Assembly (NCBI RefSeq): GCF_000214705.1
Contig: NC_015573.1
Coordinates: 2,363,001 to 2,427,000, forward strand
Source: Desulfofundulus kuznetsovii DSM 6115
Lineage (GTDB): Bacteria > Bacillota > Desulfotomaculia > Desulfotomaculales > Desulfovirgulaceae
Direction of reading: 5' to 3'
DNA length: 64,000 bases
In this document: piece after piece, positions 13,256 through 59,309 of the stretch
How positions within the stretch are numbered: position 1 is the first letter of the stretch
Layout: every line of letters begins with the position of its first letter
The notes under the pieces: model-generated
What the model was told of the DNA's origin: nothing
Seen by the model: only the letters and a program-made list of their open reading frames with translations
Databases searched by the model: none
Program-made: the position numbers and the translations under genes

Positions 13256-13329
13256 AAACTTGTGCCAGGCCAGTCCCTAGCCCCGAACGACGCCATGCCC
13301 CTTTGCTCACGAAGGGGTCAAAGGCACCC

Positions 13330-13480
13330 GCAGGCAGGTATCCTGGCTCCCGGATCATCGCCTGCCCCACGCCTTCCCTGGCGGTGGCATTGCAGGGCTG
13401 CTTCCCGGTTACAGTGGCGGAGACCGCTCAGGACTTTCACCTGATTCCCTATTCTCCCCTTTGGGGCACCTGCGGGCTGG
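13330..13480 (-). ncRNA. cobalamin (B12) riboswitch
   Basis: Read on the minus strand this is a near-textbook cobalamin aptamer: GGGAATCAGGTGAAAGTCC, then CGGTCTCCGCCACTG (plus 13412-13426), GGGAAGGCGTGGGGCAGGCG, and the B12 box GAGCCAGGATACCTGCC (plus 13333-13349). The closing helix P1 is GCAGGT (13468-13473) with ACCTGC (13334-13339). A terminator stem follows at 13223-13255. It precedes cobU and should switch off cobU-cobC when adenosylcobalamin is plentiful. Together aptamer and terminator fill the gap between the DUF3842 gene and cobU. Confidence 0.96.
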
Positions 13481-13532
13481 ATAATCACTTTGTTGGCTAA
13501 TTCGCTATTTTAAAAGAAAATCCTCTTCACAG

Positions 13533-41667: not shown

Positions 41668-43386
41668 TTAAAACGTTGCCAGTACTTTGAGTTCGAACCT
41701 TTCCTGCTCCAGTTTTTCTTCCCGCCCCAGGAATTCGGCGAGGTCGACATTATAATGAATTTCAATCTTATCCCGGTACAAAACCACCTTGCTGATGATC
41801 TGGGCGAGCATCTGCTTTTTCGTCTCGACTGGGGCCTCCATGAACAGCTTGAACCACTGGGGAGCACGCATGGAAAATTCCATCAGCTGGCTTCTCCGAT
41901 GCTTCTCCACTCTCGCCTGCGACTTTACTTCTTCAAGCTCCTTCTCAAGTGATTCTACTATCCTGCCGTATTCGTTCACTTTTTCAGCCAGCAGTTGCTC
42001 CGAATACAAACTGCCATCCGGATCGGCGAAATAATCATCCAACCGTCTTACCCAGGCATTATAAATTTTCCTGTTTTTGCTTAACTCCTTTTCCAGGGTC
42101 TTCACACGATTTGTCGCTTCAGCCAGGTAGTCCACCTGTTTCTGTTCAACATACTGCAAAAGATCTTCACAATTCAACCCGGACAGGAAATTTTCAAGTT
42201 CCTGCAGGAAAATCCGGTCTATCTTTCTCTGGGAGTACGATCCCTGCCCTTCACACAGTTTCTCTCCCCCGCCTACACGGGCGTGGGTAACACACCGGTA
42301 AACCCTTTTCTGACAGGGATATGCCTTGCCGTTACGTTTGCGCCAGTTATGGCCGGAGCTGATAAAGCCGCGGCCGCAGTAACCGCACACAAGAAAGCCG
42401 GTCAGGAGTGCACTGCTGGACATGGCGCGGGGATTCGGAGTTCCTCCCTTTTGTGTTTTAGACGTACAATTTTCCTGCATCTTGCGGATCAACCGTTGCC
42501 ATGTTTCCAGGGGAATAATGGAGTATTCGGGTATCGGCTTCGGGTTTCCATCCTGATCCCGGGGAATGATGAAATTGTTCAGGTCCGTATATCCTTTGAT
42601 GCGAACCCTGGAAGTGGGAGTGTTTCCCGGTTTCGTCCTGTCATAGGCCGGAAGCCCGCAGATTATTGGGTTCTGCAGCACCTGCCGCACCCGGGTGTCG
42701 GTCCACAACCTGCCTTCCCGGGTGCGGTACCCCTGTTCGTTCAACGCAGCGGCTATCCTTTTGCTTCCCAAGCCTTCTTCCAGGTAGAGTCTGCACATTT
42801 CCTTAATCACCGCGGCCTCTTCCTGATCCACTTCCAGCGGCAAACCTTTTTTGGACTCGGATAGCCTGAACCCGTATGGAGGGCGGCCACCGGTCCAGCA
42901 TCCCTGTTTGGCTTTCTGCCGCATAACATGAGACACGCGGATTCTGGTGTTCACACTTTCCGTCTCCGATTGCCACCCTTCGATAAACCGCAGGAGCTTG
43001 TCATACTGGTCCTTAAGCTCCAGCTTTTTACCTCCAGGTACATCGGCGACGGCGATAACCTCGACACCGGCACGGTGAAACTGCCATAAGACTATCGGGT
43101 ACTCCAGGCTTTTGCGTGAGAGGCGGTCGGCCTTAAATACAAGCAGAATCTTAAATTTACCCATTAACGCGTCGGCAAGAACGTTCTGCAGGATGTCTCT
43201 GTCGTCTTTGCTGTACTTAAATGCTGAAACGCCTTCTTCCGCGTATTCCTTCACAAGTTCCCATTCCGGATGTTGTGCAACAAATTCGCGTATTACGTTC
43301 GCCTGAAGCGGTATGCTGTCTTCCTCGTTATTTTTCAACTGCTTGGCGGTCGATACCCTGTATAATGATGCTACCGGAATGGTCAT
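41668..43386 (-). CDS. large serine recombinase (integrase of the element)
   Basis: About 572 residues. The resolvase domain holds the catalytic Ser12 in SLYRVSTAKQ and the Arg-rich KADRLSRKSLEYPIVLW; a recombinase domain follows (GGRPPYGFRLSESKKGLPLE), a zinc ribbon (LVCGYCGRGFISSG with later Cys residues) and a C-terminal coiled coil (RVKTLEKELSKNRKIYNAWV). It is at the very edge of the insertion and so is the likely integrase. The ATG at 43386 with AGGGG eight bases upstream is preferred to a GTG at 43395. Confidence 0.92.
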   Translation of the reverse strand: MTIPVASLYRVSTAKQLKNNEEDSIPLQANVIREFVAQHPEWELVKEYAEEGVSAFKYSKDDRDILQNVLADALMGKFKILLVFKADRLSRKSLEYPIVLWQFHRAGVEVIAVADVPGGKKLELKDQYDKLLRFIEGWQSETESVNTRIRVSHVMRQKAKQGCWTGGRPPYGFRLSESKKGLPLEVDQEEAAVIKEMCRLYLEEGLGSKRIAAALNEQGYRTREGRLWTDTRVRQVLQNPIICGLPAYDRTKPGNTPTSRVRIKGYTDLNNFIIPRDQDGNPKPIPEYSIIPLETWQRLIRKMQENCTSKTQKGGTPNPRAMSSSALLTGFLVCGYCGRGFISSGHNWRKRNGKAYPCQKRVYRCVTHARVGGGEKLCEGQGSYSQRKIDRIFLQELENFLSGLNCEDLLQYVEQKQVDYLAEATNRVKTLEKELSKNRKIYNAWVRRLDDYFADPDGSLYSEQLLAEKVNEYGRIVESLEKELEEVKSQARVEKHRRSQLMEFSMRAPQWFKLFMEAPVETKKQMLAQIISKVVLYRDKIEIHYNVDLAEFLGREEKLEQERFELKVLATF

Positions 43387-43397
43387 GGAAAGCACCC

Positions 43398-46149: not shown

Positions 46150-46452
46150 TTACCACTCATTTGTATCTACCCGCTCGCAGGCGTCCTCTATAGCTCTTTT
46201 CATCAATTCCCCTTCTTCCGGCGGTATAACTCCAGCAAAGCGAAGCAAATCCCTACCGGGCGTTCCCTCGTTAAGAGTATGGAAAGGCAGGCGATTGACC
46301 TCCACTAAGATTTCCTGTTGAATTGGCTTAGTGCCTACTTTAACCACCATCCCTGTTAATCTTAACCGGCACGGAAGCCGGTTCCAACCCTGACAAAGGG
46401 GCCCCGTTAGTGCATGCCTTATTAAGAACTCATTTAGCGAAAGATAAATCAA
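46150..46452 (-). pseudogene. orphan VapB-like antitoxin, probably a remnant
   Basis: The C-terminal 35 residues (GRDLLRFAGVIPPEEGELMK... RVDTNEW) match the typical tail of VapB-type antitoxins in clostridia. The N-terminal half (MIYLSLNEFLIRHALTGPLC...) looks unrelated and has no ribosome site; it starts at a TTG overlapping the stop of the HEPN gene. No PIN toxin follows: the next gene is virD4. I read it as a toxin-less relic, possibly translated by coupling. Confidence 0.5.
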
Positions 46453-46868
46453 TCTTCTGGGGGAAAGTCTTTTATCGTTTTCATGACCAGGGCTTCAATC
46501 TGCTGCAGATATTTCTTCCCGAGTACAAGGTATTCTTGCACTTCCTCTCGTGAAAAATTCTTATCCCTGTAGTCCGCCTCCGCCCTGGCCGTTTGAAGGT
46601 GGTGAAGGAATCTCCCAAGCTCTCTCGGCAGAATCCCCCCTTTTACGTAGACACGGTTAACCTCAGCTATGACTGCAGAGTGTTTGGCGGGGATTTTTGC
46701 TTCAAAGGCAAGGAGGGCGAGACAAGCCCTGTAGAAAGAATAATAGATTCTGTTTATGGCACCCGGATATTTCTTCCCTTTAAAAGCCCATTCAGCCTCG
46801 TCCCAGGCCTCCCAGGCTTTTTCCATTTTCGTGCGTGCAAACTCTTTCTTTAAATCATTATTGTCCAT
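46449..46868 (-). CDS. HEPN-domain protein of a HEPN/MNT toxin-antitoxin pair
   Basis: A 139-residue, mostly helical protein of the UPF0332/HEPN type: AEWAFKGKKYPGAINRIYYS, FYRACLALLAFEAKIPAKHS, ARAEADYRDKNFSREEVQEY. HEPN toxins are often RNases with an Rx4-6H motif; RELGRFLH fits loosely, so activity is open. Its start overlaps the end of the nucleotidyltransferase gene by 11 bases. Confidence 0.8.
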   Translation of the reverse strand: MDNNDLKKEFARTKMEKAWEAWDEAEWAFKGKKYPGAINRIYYSFYRACLALLAFEAKIPAKHSAVIAEVNRVYVKGGILPRELGRFLHHLQTARAEADYRDKNFSREEVQEYLVLGKKYLQQIEALVMKTIKDFPPED

Positions 46869-47193
46869 GGAAAATTATCCCCTCTCGAGTAACGTTGCGG
46901 TAAAAGGGATCAACTTTAAATGAGGGGGAATCGAATTCTTGAATATCGCACGGCAGAGCTATAACCGGAATGTCTTCTCTCATGCTGATTTCAAAGGCTT
47001 CATCTACAATCGTATCGCGGATCTTTTTATCAAGCCTTTCCGTCACCACAAGTACGTCAATATCTGATCCCGGAACGCTGGTTCCCCTTGCCTGGGAGCC
47101 GAATAAAATTATTAATTTCACCGGAACATCTTTTTTCCTGAGGGCTTCCGCGTATGATTTAACGATCTCTACAGCTCGTTTATTAATAGGCAC
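46858..47193 (-). CDS. MNT-domain nucleotidyltransferase antitoxin
   Basis: A 111-residue minimal nucleotidyltransferase with the fold's signature GS-x10-DxD (LFGSQARGTSVPGSDIDVLV). In studied HEPN/MNT pairs the MNT partner neutralises the HEPN toxin by AMPylation. The gene leads the pair. Confidence 0.85.
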   Translation of the reverse strand: MPINKRAVEIVKSYAEALRKKDVPVKLIILFGSQARGTSVPGSDIDVLVVTERLDKKIRDTIVDEAFEISMREDIPVIALPCDIQEFDSPSFKVDPFYRNVTREGIIFHGQ

Positions 47194-47338: not shown

Positions 47339-47767
47339 TTACGAAGTTACGTCACCCTGGTACTGGTACGGAACCACTATTTCCAAATCCGGATGCGGGA
47401 CATATTTAAAGTCGTCCGGGTTTCTGGTATATAGCGGCAATCTATAGGCTATGGCGGTGGCCGCTATGTAACAGTCTTCCACGTGGTGGTCACGGTATTC
47501 GGCAGAGTGGCGGGAAAGCAAGCCGGCAATCCGGGCAATCTTTTTGGTGGTTGGTAATATGAGACAGAACTGGGGTAGGATAGTTTGGATACGTTTCTCT
47601 TCTTGTTCGGAGATATAGGGATATTGGAGCACTTCCTTGATTGTGTGACAGGAAATATATCTTTTGATCCGGTTGGAAGTAAGATATTTAAACAATTCGA
47701 TGACCTGCTTGGAATTAAAAGCGTGTTCAGGATTTTTCGGCCTTGATTTACGATATGTCCTGAGCAC
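47339..47767 (-). pseudogene. 5'-truncated PIN-domain toxin
   Basis: The frame from a GTG at 47767 encodes 142 residues. The C-terminal half is a good PIN domain: HHVEDCYIAATAIAYRLPLYTRNPDDFKYV, with the acidic residues expected late in the fold. The N-terminal LDTN strand with the first catalytic Asp is missing, and no ribosome site precedes the GTG. Upstream sequence in the same frame belongs to a different PIN relic and ends in TAA. I call it a fragment. Confidence 0.6.
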
Positions 47768-48295: not shown

Positions 48296-49246
48296 TCACT
48301 TCCCTGTATAAACACTGGTCACTTCCGGCCTGCCGTGGCCCAGAAGCTCCGCCACCTCCAGTTTTGCCGCCCTTTCCGGACTTACCCTGCGGAAGCCGTA
48401 TTTCTCCGGATGCTCCAACCGGCAGGCCAGCTCCTCCCGGGCGTAGGCGTGGCGCAATCCGTGAAAGGTAATCGGCCGGTCGGTGATTTCTTCCCGGTGC
48501 CGTTCGATGAATTTCTGGATGCTTTTGATAACTCTGTGCGTCTTTTCGCCTGGCGCGACGAAGATCTTCTCCCCCCTGGTCCCCCCGCGCTCTTCCAGGA
48601 ACCGCTCCAGTTCCACCTTTAACTCCAGGCGCAGCGGCACCCGGCGCACCCGACCCCCTTTCCCTTTGACCTCCAGTTCTCCATCCTTCAGAGCGTCCCG
48701 GACGTGGCCCACCGTGAGCCTGGTACACTCGTGGATCCTCAGCCCCGCGTGGCGGGCCAGCTTCATGGCCATCACCACGTCCGCACGGCCCAGTTTTTCG
48801 GCCTTCTCCAGCATCCGCCGGTATTCTTCTTCCGTCCAGGCCCTATCTTTGCCGCCGGCCGGGGTCTTTTCGAGCCCCAGCGCCCGGTTATCCGGCAGTT
48901 CATTGCGCGAACCGGTGAAGCGATGGAAAAACCGCACCGCCGCCAGGTCGTTTTTCAGCGTCTTTTCGGATATGCCCTCCTGGCGGCGGTATTCCACGTA
49001 TGCCCGCAGGTGCTTTTCGCCGATGTTGGCGATCTTCTGCAAACGAAATTTTTCCGCGCAGAACCAGAGGAAGTTCTTCATGCTGTCACGATAGCGAAAG
49101 TGGGATTGCTTGGATTTTGAGTGAGCAGTGGCATCGACGGCCTCTCTCCAGATTTTCTCAAATTGTGCCATGAGGTTTTTGTACACGCCCCCTGCCCCTT
49201 TTACGCCTGTAGCTGTTTTTGATTTCTTCACAGAACCTTTTGTCAT
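48296..49246 (-). CDS. tyrosine recombinase
   Basis: About 316 residues from the ATG at 49246. A SAM-like core-binding domain (HFRYRDSMKNFLWFCAEKFR, KNDLAAVRFFHRFTG) is followed by the catalytic domain with Arg in RHAGLRIHECTRLT, HxxR in FHGLRHAYAR, and the late His and Tyr in ELLGHGRPEVTSVYTGK. The Tyr is four residues from the end. It lies inside the element, 6.6 kb from the integrase edge, so it may resolve multimers or move cassettes. Its start overlaps the upstream gene by 89 bases. Confidence 0.88.
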   Translation of the reverse strand: MTKGSVKKSKTATGVKGAGGVYKNLMAQFEKIWREAVDATAHSKSKQSHFRYRDSMKNFLWFCAEKFRLQKIANIGEKHLRAYVEYRRQEGISEKTLKNDLAAVRFFHRFTGSRNELPDNRALGLEKTPAGGKDRAWTEEEYRRMLEKAEKLGRADVVMAMKLARHAGLRIHECTRLTVGHVRDALKDGELEVKGKGGRVRRVPLRLELKVELERFLEERGGTRGEKIFVAPGEKTHRVIKSIQKFIERHREEITDRPITFHGLRHAYAREELACRLEHPEKYGFRRVSPERAAKLEVAELLGHGRPEVTSVYTGK

Positions 49247-49604
49247 CGAGCCTCGCCTCCAGTTCCAGAAGCACCTTATTCTCGGGCATTTCATACTTTC
49301 GCCATGGGATCTGCCGGTGCCACCAGCGAATTACGGAATAATAACGTAGCACAGTCCGTTCACTGCGACCTACTTCTTTAAGGTATTTAGAAAATGCCGC
49401 TACATGGCGGGGCTGAATGTTACGAATATCTTCCGGTCCAAAGCGCTCAGCCAGGAAATGCAGAAATTTTATGTATTTCCGGTACCACTCTATGCGCTTC
49501 TCGTACGAGCCGCCCCTGGCGTAACGAGCAACCCTATCCACAAACTGCCGGCCCAGGCGGTCGAGGATGGGATTTCCGGTATTTTCCCAGGAAACCCGTA
49601 GCAT
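49158..49604 (-). CDS. stand-alone core-binding (SAM-like) domain protein paired with the recombinase
   Basis: A 148-residue protein resembling only the N-terminal DNA-binding domain of tyrosine recombinases: RIEWYRKYIKFLHFLAERFG, IQPRHVAAFSKYLKEVGRSE, RTVLRYYSVIRWWHRQIPWR, with a basic tail (YRRKRGRGRVQKPHG). It overlaps the full-length recombinase gene by 89 bases in another frame. The recombinase already has its own such domain. This may be an accessory DNA-binding partner or a truncated second recombinase. Confidence 0.65.
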   Translation of the reverse strand: MLRVSWENTGNPILDRLGRQFVDRVARYARGGSYEKRIEWYRKYIKFLHFLAERFGPEDIRNIQPRHVAAFSKYLKEVGRSERTVLRYYSVIRWWHRQIPWRKYEMPENKVLLELEARLDDKRFCEEIKNSYRRKRGRGRVQKPHGTI

Positions 49605-49739
49605 TTTATCCCCCCTGATCTAAATTCCCCTTGGAAGCTTTTTTAGCTTAATTGGAAGGTACTTCCTGCTTTAAAAGAAGACAAAAGTAACCCAGAGGTT
49701 TATTTTCCTGAGCTCCCGTCACGTGGGTATATGCCGGAA

Positions 49740-50460
49740 AAAACCTTTTGCAAATGCCCTTCGGGCCTTGCGCTGCGCGGCTTTTTTGTCGCGGGCTGCG
49801 CCCGTCTCAGTGCCCCCTCCGCTTTCGCTCCGGTGGCCTGAGACGGGCTTCCGCCCGTTTTTGCGCTTCGCGGTGCGGGCTTGCGCCCGATTGCGGCTTT
49901 GCCGTGCGGGCTTACGCCCGTTGCCTGCCGCTCCGCGGTTTGCCCGGCGGGCTGCGCCCGGGCTTGCACCCCCGGGGCCCTTGCCCCGTCCGCTGCGGGG
50001 CAACCGCCCCGGGGGTGGTGCCTGTTTTGTTGTCTGCGTGCTCCCGACGGCCGGCTTTCAAAGCCCGCCTCGCACGCCTTTATGAGCTTGTTAAGCATTC
50101 ACTGAGGCCCTATTACCCCACTTATGGGGGCGGCAGGTGCCGCCAGGGCCCATGGTGTGGACCCCATACTCCATATGGAGTGGTTAGTCAGCGATCAATC
50201 GCGTCATAACCGGGGGTCCGGCAACGCCGCTAATTTGCGGCGAGGGAGGAGGGCCGCAAGCCGGCGTCATACCTCCGTTGGTTGATTAAGGTTGGAGCAG
50301 GTGCCGACCCTGCGGCCGGCACCCCTCAACCACGTTCTCGATCCCGGGAGTGTCTGCCTGCACAGCGCCATTCAGCGCATGTGGCAGACAGACCGGGACC
50401 CATTGCGGGCGCCGCCGAAATGCGGCCCCCATTTACCCAGGGGAGGAGACGGGAAATCAT
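49740..50460. ncRNA. gene-free stretch of GC-rich hairpins, possible structured RNA
   Basis: The 896-base gap 49605-50500 has no convincing gene. From 49790 to 49962 small hairpins of the form CGGGC-TTnC/TG-CGCCCG recur five times, beside GTCTCAG...CTGAGAC (49804-49844). From 50104 on, GGCCCT...AGGGCC encloses two inner stems (a three-way junction); then ACTCCATATGGAGT, CGCCGC-TAATTT-GCGGCG, GGTGCCG...CGGCACC inside GGTTG...CAACC, and TGTCTGCC...GGCAGACA follow. The strand is not certain. Frames crossing it give Ala/Arg/Pro-rich low-complexity protein. Confidence 0.4.
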
Positions 50461-57832: not shown

Positions 57833-58495
57833 TCAAGTGGTTTTCTGAAAAATTTTCCGGCGCAGTTCACCCGGCGCAAAGAGCAGTTCGTCCGCGGTGT
57901 ACATTTTGCCCGGCGGGGTGAGGATTTTTCCTTCCCGGAGGGTCGGGAAAATATATACGTCGGCATTCGGAACAGGGTTTTCCTCCCGGCGGGGAGCGTC
58001 AATGATCCATTGAGTTGCATTATCAGCAACGGTAAAACGCATTTCTGCCATAACAACGCTTTTCCCGTTCCTAACCACATGCCATTTAAAACCGGGCACT
58101 TCGTTCCTGGCCAGAGCATAGAAAAGCCCCAGCGCAGCCAGGCGGCAGGCTTCCTGGGCGTTTTTGGGCGGCCCGCCGTCGGCCGGAAACCAGAGACGGA
58201 ACTGCCCCTTGAATTGCCCTATTTCGGCAAATACGTTGACCCATCGGACCATTCCAGCCCACCACAGGCTGTTGAACGCCGAACCAGCTACTTTACGGTG
58301 ACAGGACAACGCGGTGGCCGCCGCGCCGGTAGTCATTGCCGTGGCTTCAGCCAGCATTTCCATTAGTTCGAAGGCTCTACCGGTATAATCTATGGATTCG
58401 TTGTCCCCCCGCTTGTATTGAGGCATGCCCAGGGCAATCCCTTTTGCGTAATTAATACCTTTGCTCGGAGGCCCGTTCCCTGCGTTTTCTTGCAC
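57833..58495 (-). CDS. winged-helix-like element protein
   Basis: A 220-residue protein from a GTG with GGAAGGAGG upstream. The first half looks like a winged helix (AFELMEMLAEATAMTTGAAA, LSCHRKVAGSAFNSLWWAGM); the second half is beta-rich (FKWHVVRNGKSVVMAEMRFT). It overlaps the S1-domain gene by 44 bases and lies just upstream of the structured RNA region on the same strand. No named family; DNA binding is inference. Confidence 0.6.
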   Translation of the reverse strand: MQENAGNGPPSKGINYAKGIALGMPQYKRGDNESIDYTGRAFELMEMLAEATAMTTGAAATALSCHRKVAGSAFNSLWWAGMVRWVNVFAEIGQFKGQFRLWFPADGGPPKNAQEACRLAALGLFYALARNEVPGFKWHVVRNGKSVVMAEMRFTVADNATQWIIDAPRREENPVPNADVYIFPTLREGKILTPPGKMYTADELLFAPGELRRKIFQKTT

Positions 58496-59309
58496 GTTGC
58501 CGCCTCCTTCCCCGGATTCTTTCTTCGTCCCAGCGTACCAGGTGGAGCACTCTGTTGTCCGGATCGTACCTCTGCACCTGGTATTTCACGGTTTCCCCAA
58601 TCTTTACCTGTTCGCTCTTAGGGTATGGGGCGATACCGACCAAACCGGGTTTCGTTTGAACGAAGGCGATATTATCTTTAATTTGAATTATTTTCCCGGT
58701 TACCATCTCGCCACGGACATATTCTCCGGGTTGCCACGGGTCTATCATTGAAATGTCAATTCTCTTTGCCGCTTTGTCGATTCCGGTCACTTGCACTTTT
58801 ACGAATTGTCCCGTGGGATACTGTACTTCAACGGGTACTGCCCGGGACAACTTGATTTCCCTCCGGGGTATCCTGACTAATACGCCACCACCGATGTCCA
58901 CAACAATGCCACTCGGAGAGGACGCCCTGACCAGCGCAAGCAGTTGCTCCGATTCTTCCAACTGTTCAATCATACGGCGCAGATTTTCTTCCACGACCTC
59001 TTTTCTGGTAAGGGCGACTATGCTGTTTTTTCGGTCGATTCCCTTGATTTTCGCCGCCACAACTTGATGTTTGAACCAGTTCATTGATGTACCTTCCGGA
59101 AGTCCGCTTTCCGATTCGGGAATTAACCCAACGATACCGAACAAGTCTTCCTGCTCTCCAAAGCTGACCTCCCAGGTGTAACCATGGCCGTTAATTGACC
59201 TTACGTTGACTATGGTTACGTTCAAGATTTGTTCCTTGTCCCTTGCCGTGTAAAGAGCGTCCCAGGGATCTATATCCCTGTAATTGGTTCCTTCCGGCGC
59301 AAAACGCAT
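58452..59309 (-). CDS. S1-domain RNA-binding protein
   Basis: A 285-residue protein with S1-type OB repeats: an N-terminal one (NVTIVNVRSINGHGYTWEVS, VVAAKIKGIDRKNSIVALTR), a middle one (ASSPSGIVVDIGGGVLVRIP) and a C-terminal one (VRGEMVTGKIIQIKDNIAFV, QTKPGLVGIAPYPKSEQVKI), ending in a very basic tail (RIRGRRRQRARKRRERASEQ). Resembles ribosomal protein S1 paralogues. Such proteins bind single-stranded RNA. Its place two genes upstream of the structured RNA is notable. ATG with ACAGGAGGG upstream. Confidence 0.82.
   Translation of the reverse strand: MRFAPEGTNYRDIDPWDALYTARDKEQILNVTIVNVRSINGHGYTWEVSFGEQEDLFGIVGLIPESESGLPEGTSMNWFKHQVVAAKIKGIDRKNSIVALTRKEVVEENLRRMIEQLEESEQLLALVRASSPSGIVVDIGGGVLVRIPRREIKLSRAVPVEVQYPTGQFVKVQVTGIDKAAKRIDISMIDPWQPGEYVRGEMVTGKIIQIKDNIAFVQTKPGLVGIAPYPKSEQVKIGETVKYQVQRYDPDNRVLHLVRWDEERIRGRRRQRARKRRERASEQRY

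What the first reader, a model, noticed from the sequence alone, without database searches (positions are those of the whole stretch)
49740..50460. Second structured GC-rich stretch beside the recombinase pair
An array of CGGGC-loop-GCCCG mini-hairpins is followed by a three-way junction and several perfect stems over 700 bases without a gene. It may be another structured RNA, an origin of transfer or replication, or a recombination hot-spot (integron-like) used by the adjoining tyrosine recombinase.
Basis: partly seen in the sequence, partly recalled or inferred. Interest (0 to 1): 0.55.

Follow-up and report, generated by a model that had tools for sequence, protein, structure and literature searches.

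The report
Structured RNA beside DNA recombinase genes
The gene-free stretch looks like a large folded RNA without a name so far, found just ahead of one kind of DNA-cutting-and-joining enzyme (a tyrosine recombinase) on mobile DNA and plasmids of several Gram-positive bacteria, which hints that these enzymes have an RNA partner or regulator.

Summary
The minus strand of 49792-50268, sense to the recombinase genes, holds two tandem three-way junctions, a GAAUGCUUAAC motif, a stem with an asymmetric loop, a lineage-specific array of GNRA-capped mini-hairpins and a terminal hairpin. No frame is conserved (relatives carry +2, +1, -1 and -41 indels). In close relatives, changes keep pairs through G-U on the minus strand but give A-C on the plus strand. 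Rfam 15 has no match. Similar architecture, with other helix sequences, precedes related tyrosine recombinases in Clostridia and Bacilli, on ICE-like elements and plasmids: 39 of 47 loci (partly near-copies) with a recombinase match of at least 30% identity show junction-plus-motif and/or terminal hairpin, against 13 of 600 random segments and 1 of 10 more distant recombinases. In three loci an ORF or transposase-like gene separates RNA and recombinase, so it may be more than a leader. Structure and association are well supported; transcription, binding and function are inferred. A DNA-level recombination site in the hairpin is not excluded.

The parts
50159..50219 (-). first three-way junction (3WJ1): closing helix GGACCCC/GGGGUCC with two hairpins
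   Evidence: consensus fold with wobble and compensatory changes; my strict tandem rule found 3WJ1 in 5 of 9 representatives, not in the window itself
50105..50151 (-). second three-way junction (3WJ2): GGGCCCUG/UAGGGCCU with two hairpins
   Evidence: same topology with other sequence in distant relatives
50090..50100 (-). conserved motif GAAUGCUUAAC, 3' of 3WJ2 (wider family mostly U(A/G)(C/U)UNAAC, with variants UACUGUCCAAC and UGCUGUAC)
50036..50077 (-). stem H2: GCGUGC-GAGGC ... GCC-nnnGGA-GCACGC, followed by AGACAAC
   Evidence: covariance model R1 includes it
49967..50017 (-). long GC-rich hairpin with 22-nt arms; a 41-nt deletion removes most of it in the second copy of genome G001
49844..49971 (-). 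array of mini-hairpins, CGGGC-GNRA-GCCCG type on the minus strand; lineage-specific
49800..49848 (-). terminal hairpin GCCCGUCUCAG / CUGAGACGGGC; this exact inverted repeat lies at 10 places in 9 of 113 order genomes, while G019, G031, G056 and G071 carry variant arms
50221..50460 (-). further hairpins 5' of 3WJ1; less conserved, the 5' end of the RNA is not located
49640..49760 (-). U-rich 3' stretch (GGUUACUUUUGUCUUCUUUU) between RNA and recombinase RBS
   Evidence: no minus-strand terminator by the strict scan
49158..49604 (-). ORF1, 148 aa, core-binding (SAM-like) domain only, no catalytic domain matched
48296..49294 (-). ORF2, 332 aa, tyrosine recombinase with Phage_integrase domain

Best explanation
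The stretch encodes, on the recombinase strand, a large structured non-coding RNA that belongs with a group of tyrosine recombinases of Bacillota plasmids and ICE-like elements. Shown: it is noncoding, has a conserved secondary structure on the minus strand, and similar structures recur ahead of related recombinases. Inferred: it is transcribed, as an RNA partly separable from the recombinase mRNA; the tandem three-way junctions with the UACUNAAC-type motif form a scaffold; the recombinase, or its core-binding-domain-only partner ORF1, binds the terminal hairpin, whose stem core (about CYKTYWCW) is kept while its loop varies from 3 to 79 nt; the complex controls or takes part in recombination, or marks the element as self.
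For: Minus-strand alignment of 7 sequences: 75 pairs, covariation term -1.74, 5 pairs with double changes; plus strand 80 pairs, +2.29 and 2. Derived pair types on the minus-strand fold: 19 by the wobble route, 3 A-C, 5 other mismatches, 5 double changes. 3WJ2 next to the motif in 9 of 9 representatives (0-3 of 100 shuffles reach the score), strict tandem in 5 of 9 with 0 of 100 shuffles. Junction+motif in 28, terminal hairpin in 35, either in 39, both in 24 of 47 loci with a recombinase match of at least 30% identity; control 12, 1, 13 and 0 of 600 segments. Model R1 in 113 order genomes and a sample of 398 phylum genomes (the sets overlap): 15 distinct places, 14 ahead of ORF1 (one with a transposase-like ORF between), the other, G008, a remnant without ORF1. 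Exact terminal inverted repeat: 10 places in 9 of 113 genomes, all 10 ahead of ORF1. RNA kept although a 364-aa ORF (L153), a 145-aa ORF (L152) or a 406-aa transposase-like ORF (L128) lies between it and the recombinase.
Against: No expression data. No promoter-like site near the RNA and no minus-strand terminator in the window; the strict scan also does not report the terminators I see by eye in L153 and L152. The association fits cis-regulation as well. The core of the terminal hairpin is kept in sequence, as a DNA-protein site would be, and its stems hold relatively fewer G-U pairs than 3WJ2 (23 of 457 against 29 of 303, Fisher p 0.019). 8 of 47 loci show neither feature within 900 nt; two of these have the RNA further up and one is an ORF1 fragment, five stay without. 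R1 reaches near relatives only and misses G017, where pattern and folding show the RNA. No recombination site or substrate was identified.
Confidence: 0.5

Rival explanations
1. A cis-acting 5' leader: the RNA is the long untranslated start of the recombinase mRNA and controls its expression by alternative folding or feedback binding.
For: On the recombinase strand and mostly within 500 nt of its start codon. Around the terminal hairpin the mini-hairpin ACGGGC-GNRA-GCCCGU and the long stem share one strand, a mutually exclusive pairing I see by eye in several families. Terminator-like sites between RNA and recombinase in 11 of 28 loci by a loose scan (antisense 6, shuffled mean 1.9).
Against: Three loci where an ORF lies between RNA and recombinase and the RNA is kept, though those alleles could be inactive. 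Several hundred nt with tandem junctions is large for an attenuator. No minus-strand terminator in the window by the strict scan.
Confidence: 0.3
2. A DNA-level site: the terminal inverted repeat is the recombination or binding site of the recombinase, as duplex half-sites or as a folded single strand in the manner of integron attC; the rest is accessory.
For: Stem core kept in sequence and differing between recombinase groups; perfect arms of 25, 25 and 27 nt with 4-nt loops in the Brevibacillus and two Paenibacillus plasmids L133, L136, L147; relatively few G-U pairs in that stem. Recombination sites often lie beside their recombinase gene (general knowledge).
Against: The distance between arms varies from 3 to 79 nt, hard for a duplex core site; the junction region shows an RNA-like wobble pattern. 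No site is known: a search for direct repeats of 13-14 nt or more near three presumed element ends found none.
Confidence: 0.17
3. Chance GC-rich folding or an overlooked gene.
For: GC-rich stretch; a 132-aa minus-strand ORF overlaps it in the window.
Against: z-scores near -7, wobble and compensatory changes, frame-breaking indels in relatives, recurrence ahead of homologous recombinases.
Confidence: 0.03

Closest known systems
STAXI motif (Ssbp, Topoisomerase, Antirestriction, XerDC Integrase), PMC2864571 (one section and found passages seen)
   Same: Repeated structured elements near topoisomerase, antirestriction and XerDC-type integrase genes; this ICE-like element also has a topoisomerase, an ArdC-type gene and a XerC/D-like recombinase.
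   Different: STAXI is described as a repeated pseudoknot with frequent UUCG loops; here tandem three-way junctions, a motif and a long hairpin ahead of one recombinase group; no Rfam match.
IS110 bridge RNA (PMC11208158, only title and start of abstract seen)
   Same: A non-coding RNA encoded by the element beside its recombinase.
   Different: The IS110 enzyme is of another recombinase class (recalled) and its RNA has programmable loops; here a tyrosine recombinase, and no guide-target match was sought.
Large ornate RNAs GOLLD, ROOL, OLE (PMC12286853, start of abstract) and raiA RNA (PMC11706538, start of abstract)
   Same: Long, highly structured bacterial RNAs.
   Different: None matches here by covariance model (that these families are in the library is recalled); none is tied to a tyrosine recombinase as far as I recall.
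Candidate structured RNAs near integrase domains in human microbiomes (PMC8040213, passages)
   Same: That study reports 28 candidates most often near domains named integrase, sortase or phage, one (67 bp) mostly in Firmicutes near integrases.
   Different: I could not compare sequences, so overlap is not excluded; the candidates whose sizes I saw are far shorter.
Integron attC with intI
   Same: Tyrosine recombinase with a hairpin whose apical part varies.
   Different: Recombinase far below the integron-integrase cut-off; R box not conserved; no cassette array was looked for.
ColE1 cer site with Rcd RNA (recalled)
   Same: Small RNA made at a plasmid's Xer recombination site.
   Different: Rcd is under 100 nt and works with host XerCD; here a large RNA with an element-encoded recombinase.

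Membership tests
Any Rfam 15 family | covariance-model match at the gathering score | tested here: not met
   window: only a cobalamin riboswitch elsewhere; 12 related loci and 8 plasmid loci: none; sub-threshold matches on the stretch reach E 0.11 at best
STAXI motif | match to the STAXI covariance model | tested here: not met
   no such match; that the model is among the 4227 families is recalled
Integron (intI + attC) | integron integrase | tested here: not met
   TIGR02249 39.6 bits, cut-off 265
Integron (intI + attC) | conserved R box RYYYAAC with partner GTTRRRY | tested here: not met
   GCTTAAC and ACTCAAC fit, ACTAAAC and GCTAAAC do not; the partner box was looked for by eye only
IS110 bridge RNA system | IS110-type recombinase | tested here: not met
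   the neighbour carries Phage_integrase PF00589
Tyrosine recombinase (for ORF2) | Phage_integrase catalytic domain | tested here: met
   PF00589 53.3 bits, cut-off 27.1
Structured RNA | covariation supporting helices on one strand | tested here: met
   R-scape was not available
Structured RNA | transcription | not testable with these tools
   no expression data
Origin of transfer | nick site with cognate relaxase | not tested
   no relaxase or nick search was made; none appears among the 20 Pfam-scanned proteins

The most novel reading that the evidence does not exclude
Tyrosine recombinases with a dedicated large RNA: the RNA acts in trans as an essential part of the recombinase complex (scaffold, site selector or self-recognition tag), to my knowledge the first such case for the tyrosine recombinase superfamily, and spread over plasmids and ICE-like elements of Clostridia and Bacilli.
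Probability: 0.3. Interest if true: 0.95.

Novelty: categorically new. Interest (0 to 1): 0.8.

Why it matters
Tyrosine recombinases are regarded as protein-only enzymes. A conserved RNA of several hundred nucleotides that goes with one group of them would be either a new layer of control over plasmid and ICE recombination or part of an RNA-dependent recombinase. Either way it is a large RNA family that I found described nowhere in what I could search, with handy test objects (small plasmids of Paenibacillus, Brevibacillus, Natranaerobius). If it proves to be only a leader, it would rank as a new variant of a known kind.

Tried and rejected
Rfam at the gathering score and, for the stretch, up to E 10: nothing convincing. 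A first alignment mixed strands because loci from whole genomes are not turned round; redone. Model R2 of 3WJ2, built from near relatives, found only one further relative, L031, and MAFFT did not align distant 3WJ2 copies sensibly, so distant copies were found with a home-made descriptor. Its hairpin-core pattern was written after seeing examples; the control used the same pattern but mostly coding segments from the same loci. A first control was contaminated by RNA loci (21 junction+motif, 41 hairpin, 58 either, of 600) and was replaced. Direct repeats at three presumed element ends: none. Viral contigs: no relative of ORF1. Terminator scans: inconclusive. The 132-aa minus-strand ORF: rejected for frame-breaking indels. 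Paper searches and finds inside four papers showed no description of such an RNA; only open-licence papers are held, the 224-motif paper was not held, supplements could not be read, and the 28 integrase/sortase/phage-neighbour candidates of PMC8040213 were not compared.

Full report
What is there. The window lies in a 3,601,386-bp single-contig genome. A genome of the same genus (G005) has a contig of the same length as a Desulfofundulus thermosubterraneus record, and the window genome's size fits Desulfofundulus kuznetsovii (recalled). Around 49740-50460 the genes I trust run on the minus strand. Upstream in transcription order are a topoisomerase, an S1-domain protein, ArdC-, RadC- and DUF3854-type genes; downstream come ORF1 (148 aa, core-binding domain only), ORF2 (332 aa, Phage_integrase), a PIN gene, a nucleotidyltransferase/HEPN pair, a TraG/VirD4-type coupling protein and a large serine recombinase. 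The setting is ICE-like; which recombinase integrates the element was not settled.

Observation. They are not coding: five close copies from four other genomes differ from the window by +2, +1, -1 and -41 nt.

Which strand. RNAalifold on seven sequences (six copies from five genomes of the genus and one 77%-identical relative) gives 75 pairs, covariation term -1.74 and 5 doubly changed pairs on the minus strand; on the plus strand 80 pairs, +2.29 and 2. On the minus-strand fold 19 derived pair types go by the wobble route, 3 are A-C, 5 other mismatches and 5 double changes. This is biased, as the fold was predicted there; but in the table I count 11 A-C types against 8 wobble types on the fold predicted for the plus strand. 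So the sense strand of the recombinase genes behaves as the folded one.

Core architecture. 5' to 3': three-way junction 1, three-way junction 2, motif GAAURCUNAAC, stem H2 with an asymmetric loop, a variable part, the terminal hairpin, a U-rich tail, the RBS of the recombinase. Nine representatives (several of them related to each other) were tested: junction 2 lies within 6 nt of the motif in 9 of 9, with 0 to 3 of 100 shuffles reaching each score; a strict tandem pair was found in 5 of 9 (G009, G045, G017, G451, G342), with 0 of 100 shuffles. In G020 the junction found is irregular and may be replaced by a plain hairpin. The helices of G009, G045, G017 and the Moorella-type copies differ widely in sequence from the window's. 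The mini-hairpin array is absent from G020 and so not core.

Spread with the recombinase. ORF1 homologues (E up to 0.001) were found in 20 of 113 genomes of the order. A covariance model of motif plus H2 (R1), which reaches near relatives only, found 10 places in 9 of 113 genomes and 7 places in 7 of 398 phylum genomes, two of these being in the first set: 15 distinct places, 14 ahead of ORF1 (in G470 with a transposase-like ORF between) and one, G008, a remnant where the RNA runs into a broken traG-like frame and no ORF1 is found. The exact pattern CCCGTCTCAG-N8-38-CTGAGACGGG occurs at 10 places in 9 of 113 genomes, all 10 ahead of ORF1; other members of the order have variant arms. Going outward by recombinase similarity, a junction with the motif and/or a hairpin with a related stem core appear ahead of more distant recombinases and on plasmids. 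The 12 Bacillota plasmid loci fetched (Brevibacillus, Sutcliffiella, Heyndrickxia twice, Paenibacillus three times, Natranaerobius, Alicyclobacillus twice, Vallitalea, Sporosarcina) have gaps of 546 to 1556 nt without a listed gene ahead of the recombinase; the plasmid gene table is incomplete by its own description. One of the 12 (L142) shows neither feature.

Counts. One search examined 57 loci, many of them near-copies. 47 have a match of at least 30% identity: junction+motif in 28, terminal hairpin in 35, either in 39, both in 24. Neither within 900 nt: L128 (RNA further up, behind a transposase-like ORF), L039 (RNA found 1.6 kb up), L129 (ORF1 fragment), L040, L043, L045, L065, L142. Of 10 loci under 30% identity, 0 have the junction and 1 (L144) a hairpin that passes the pattern. 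Control: 600 random 900-nt segments at least 2.5 kb from recombinase matches: 12 junction+motif, 1 hairpin, 13 either, 0 both. In 946,354 scanned bases (both strands, including the RNA loci) the descriptor gave 24 hits, 16 of them these RNAs. A tree of 44 recombinases (13 loci left out as near-copies, fragments or too short) needs 7 changes of the RNA label against 13.2 on average for shuffled labels (0 of 500 as low; near-copies help that). It does not show one origin: four XerC/D-like rows of the same phylum (L067-L070) fall apart with full support, but the other 40 rows, among them six rows from Pseudomonadota and Thermodesulfobacteriota plasmids, meet in an unresolved fork. Of the six unlabelled rows among the RNA groups, L039 later proved to have the RNA upstream, and L044 has a junction.

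Terminal hairpin. In 26 loci chosen because they show the features, 25 stems fit a core CYKTYWCW by my reading (L134 has CTGTCTAT), with 3 to 79 nt in the loop; 23 of 457 pairs are G-U, against 29 of 303 in junction 2. A stem kept in sequence with a free loop speaks for recognition by a protein; it does not say whether as RNA or DNA.

Separable from the gene. In L153 the RNA is followed by what looks to me like a terminator, then a 364-aa frame, then the recombinase, while the sister locus L048 has no such frame; in L152 a 145-aa frame (HicB-like by eye) stands between; in L128 a 406-aa transposase-like frame (named by eye). A loose scan flagged terminator-like sites in 11 of 28 loci (antisense 6, shuffled 1.9); the strict scan reports none on the sense strand in the window, L153 or L152. 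So the case for a separate transcript is suggestive only.

Verdict. That it works as a partner of the recombinase rather than as a leader or a DNA site: about 0.5.

Noticed in passing
window 13316-13488 (-): Cobalamin riboswitch, 110 bits.
   Followed up: no
window 41668-43395 (-): Large serine recombinase near the chromosome side of the ICE-like element, so the element carries two recombinase systems.
   Followed up: no
window 46449-47193 (-): HEPN and nucleotidyltransferase genes next to each other, and a PIN-domain gene at 47339-47767; toxin-antitoxin-like.
   Followed up: no
window 58452-59309 (-): S1 RNA-binding-domain protein inside the element, next to its topoisomerase.
   Followed up: no
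L140 (Vallitalea pronyensis pVpro), about 400-1000 nt ahead of the recombinase: Several tandem repeats of roughly 120 nt, each with hairpin-like pieces, upstream of a junction-like fold and UGUUGAAC, by eye.
   Followed up: partly
L008 (genome G008): RNA core runs into a broken traG-like frame and the recombinases are gone: looks like a deletion remnant.
   Followed up: partly
L149 and L150 (Azospira, Caballeronia plasmids): Gaps of about 1.4 and 1.8 kb without a listed gene between PRTRC protein D and the integrase region; neither core feature passed, though L150 has one loose junction hit.
   Followed up: partly
L144 (Acinetobacter sp. SWBY1 plasmid), 495 nt ahead of the integrase gene: 18-bp perfect inverted repeat with an AGTCGTCACTACT arm ahead of a distant recombinase.
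   Followed up: no
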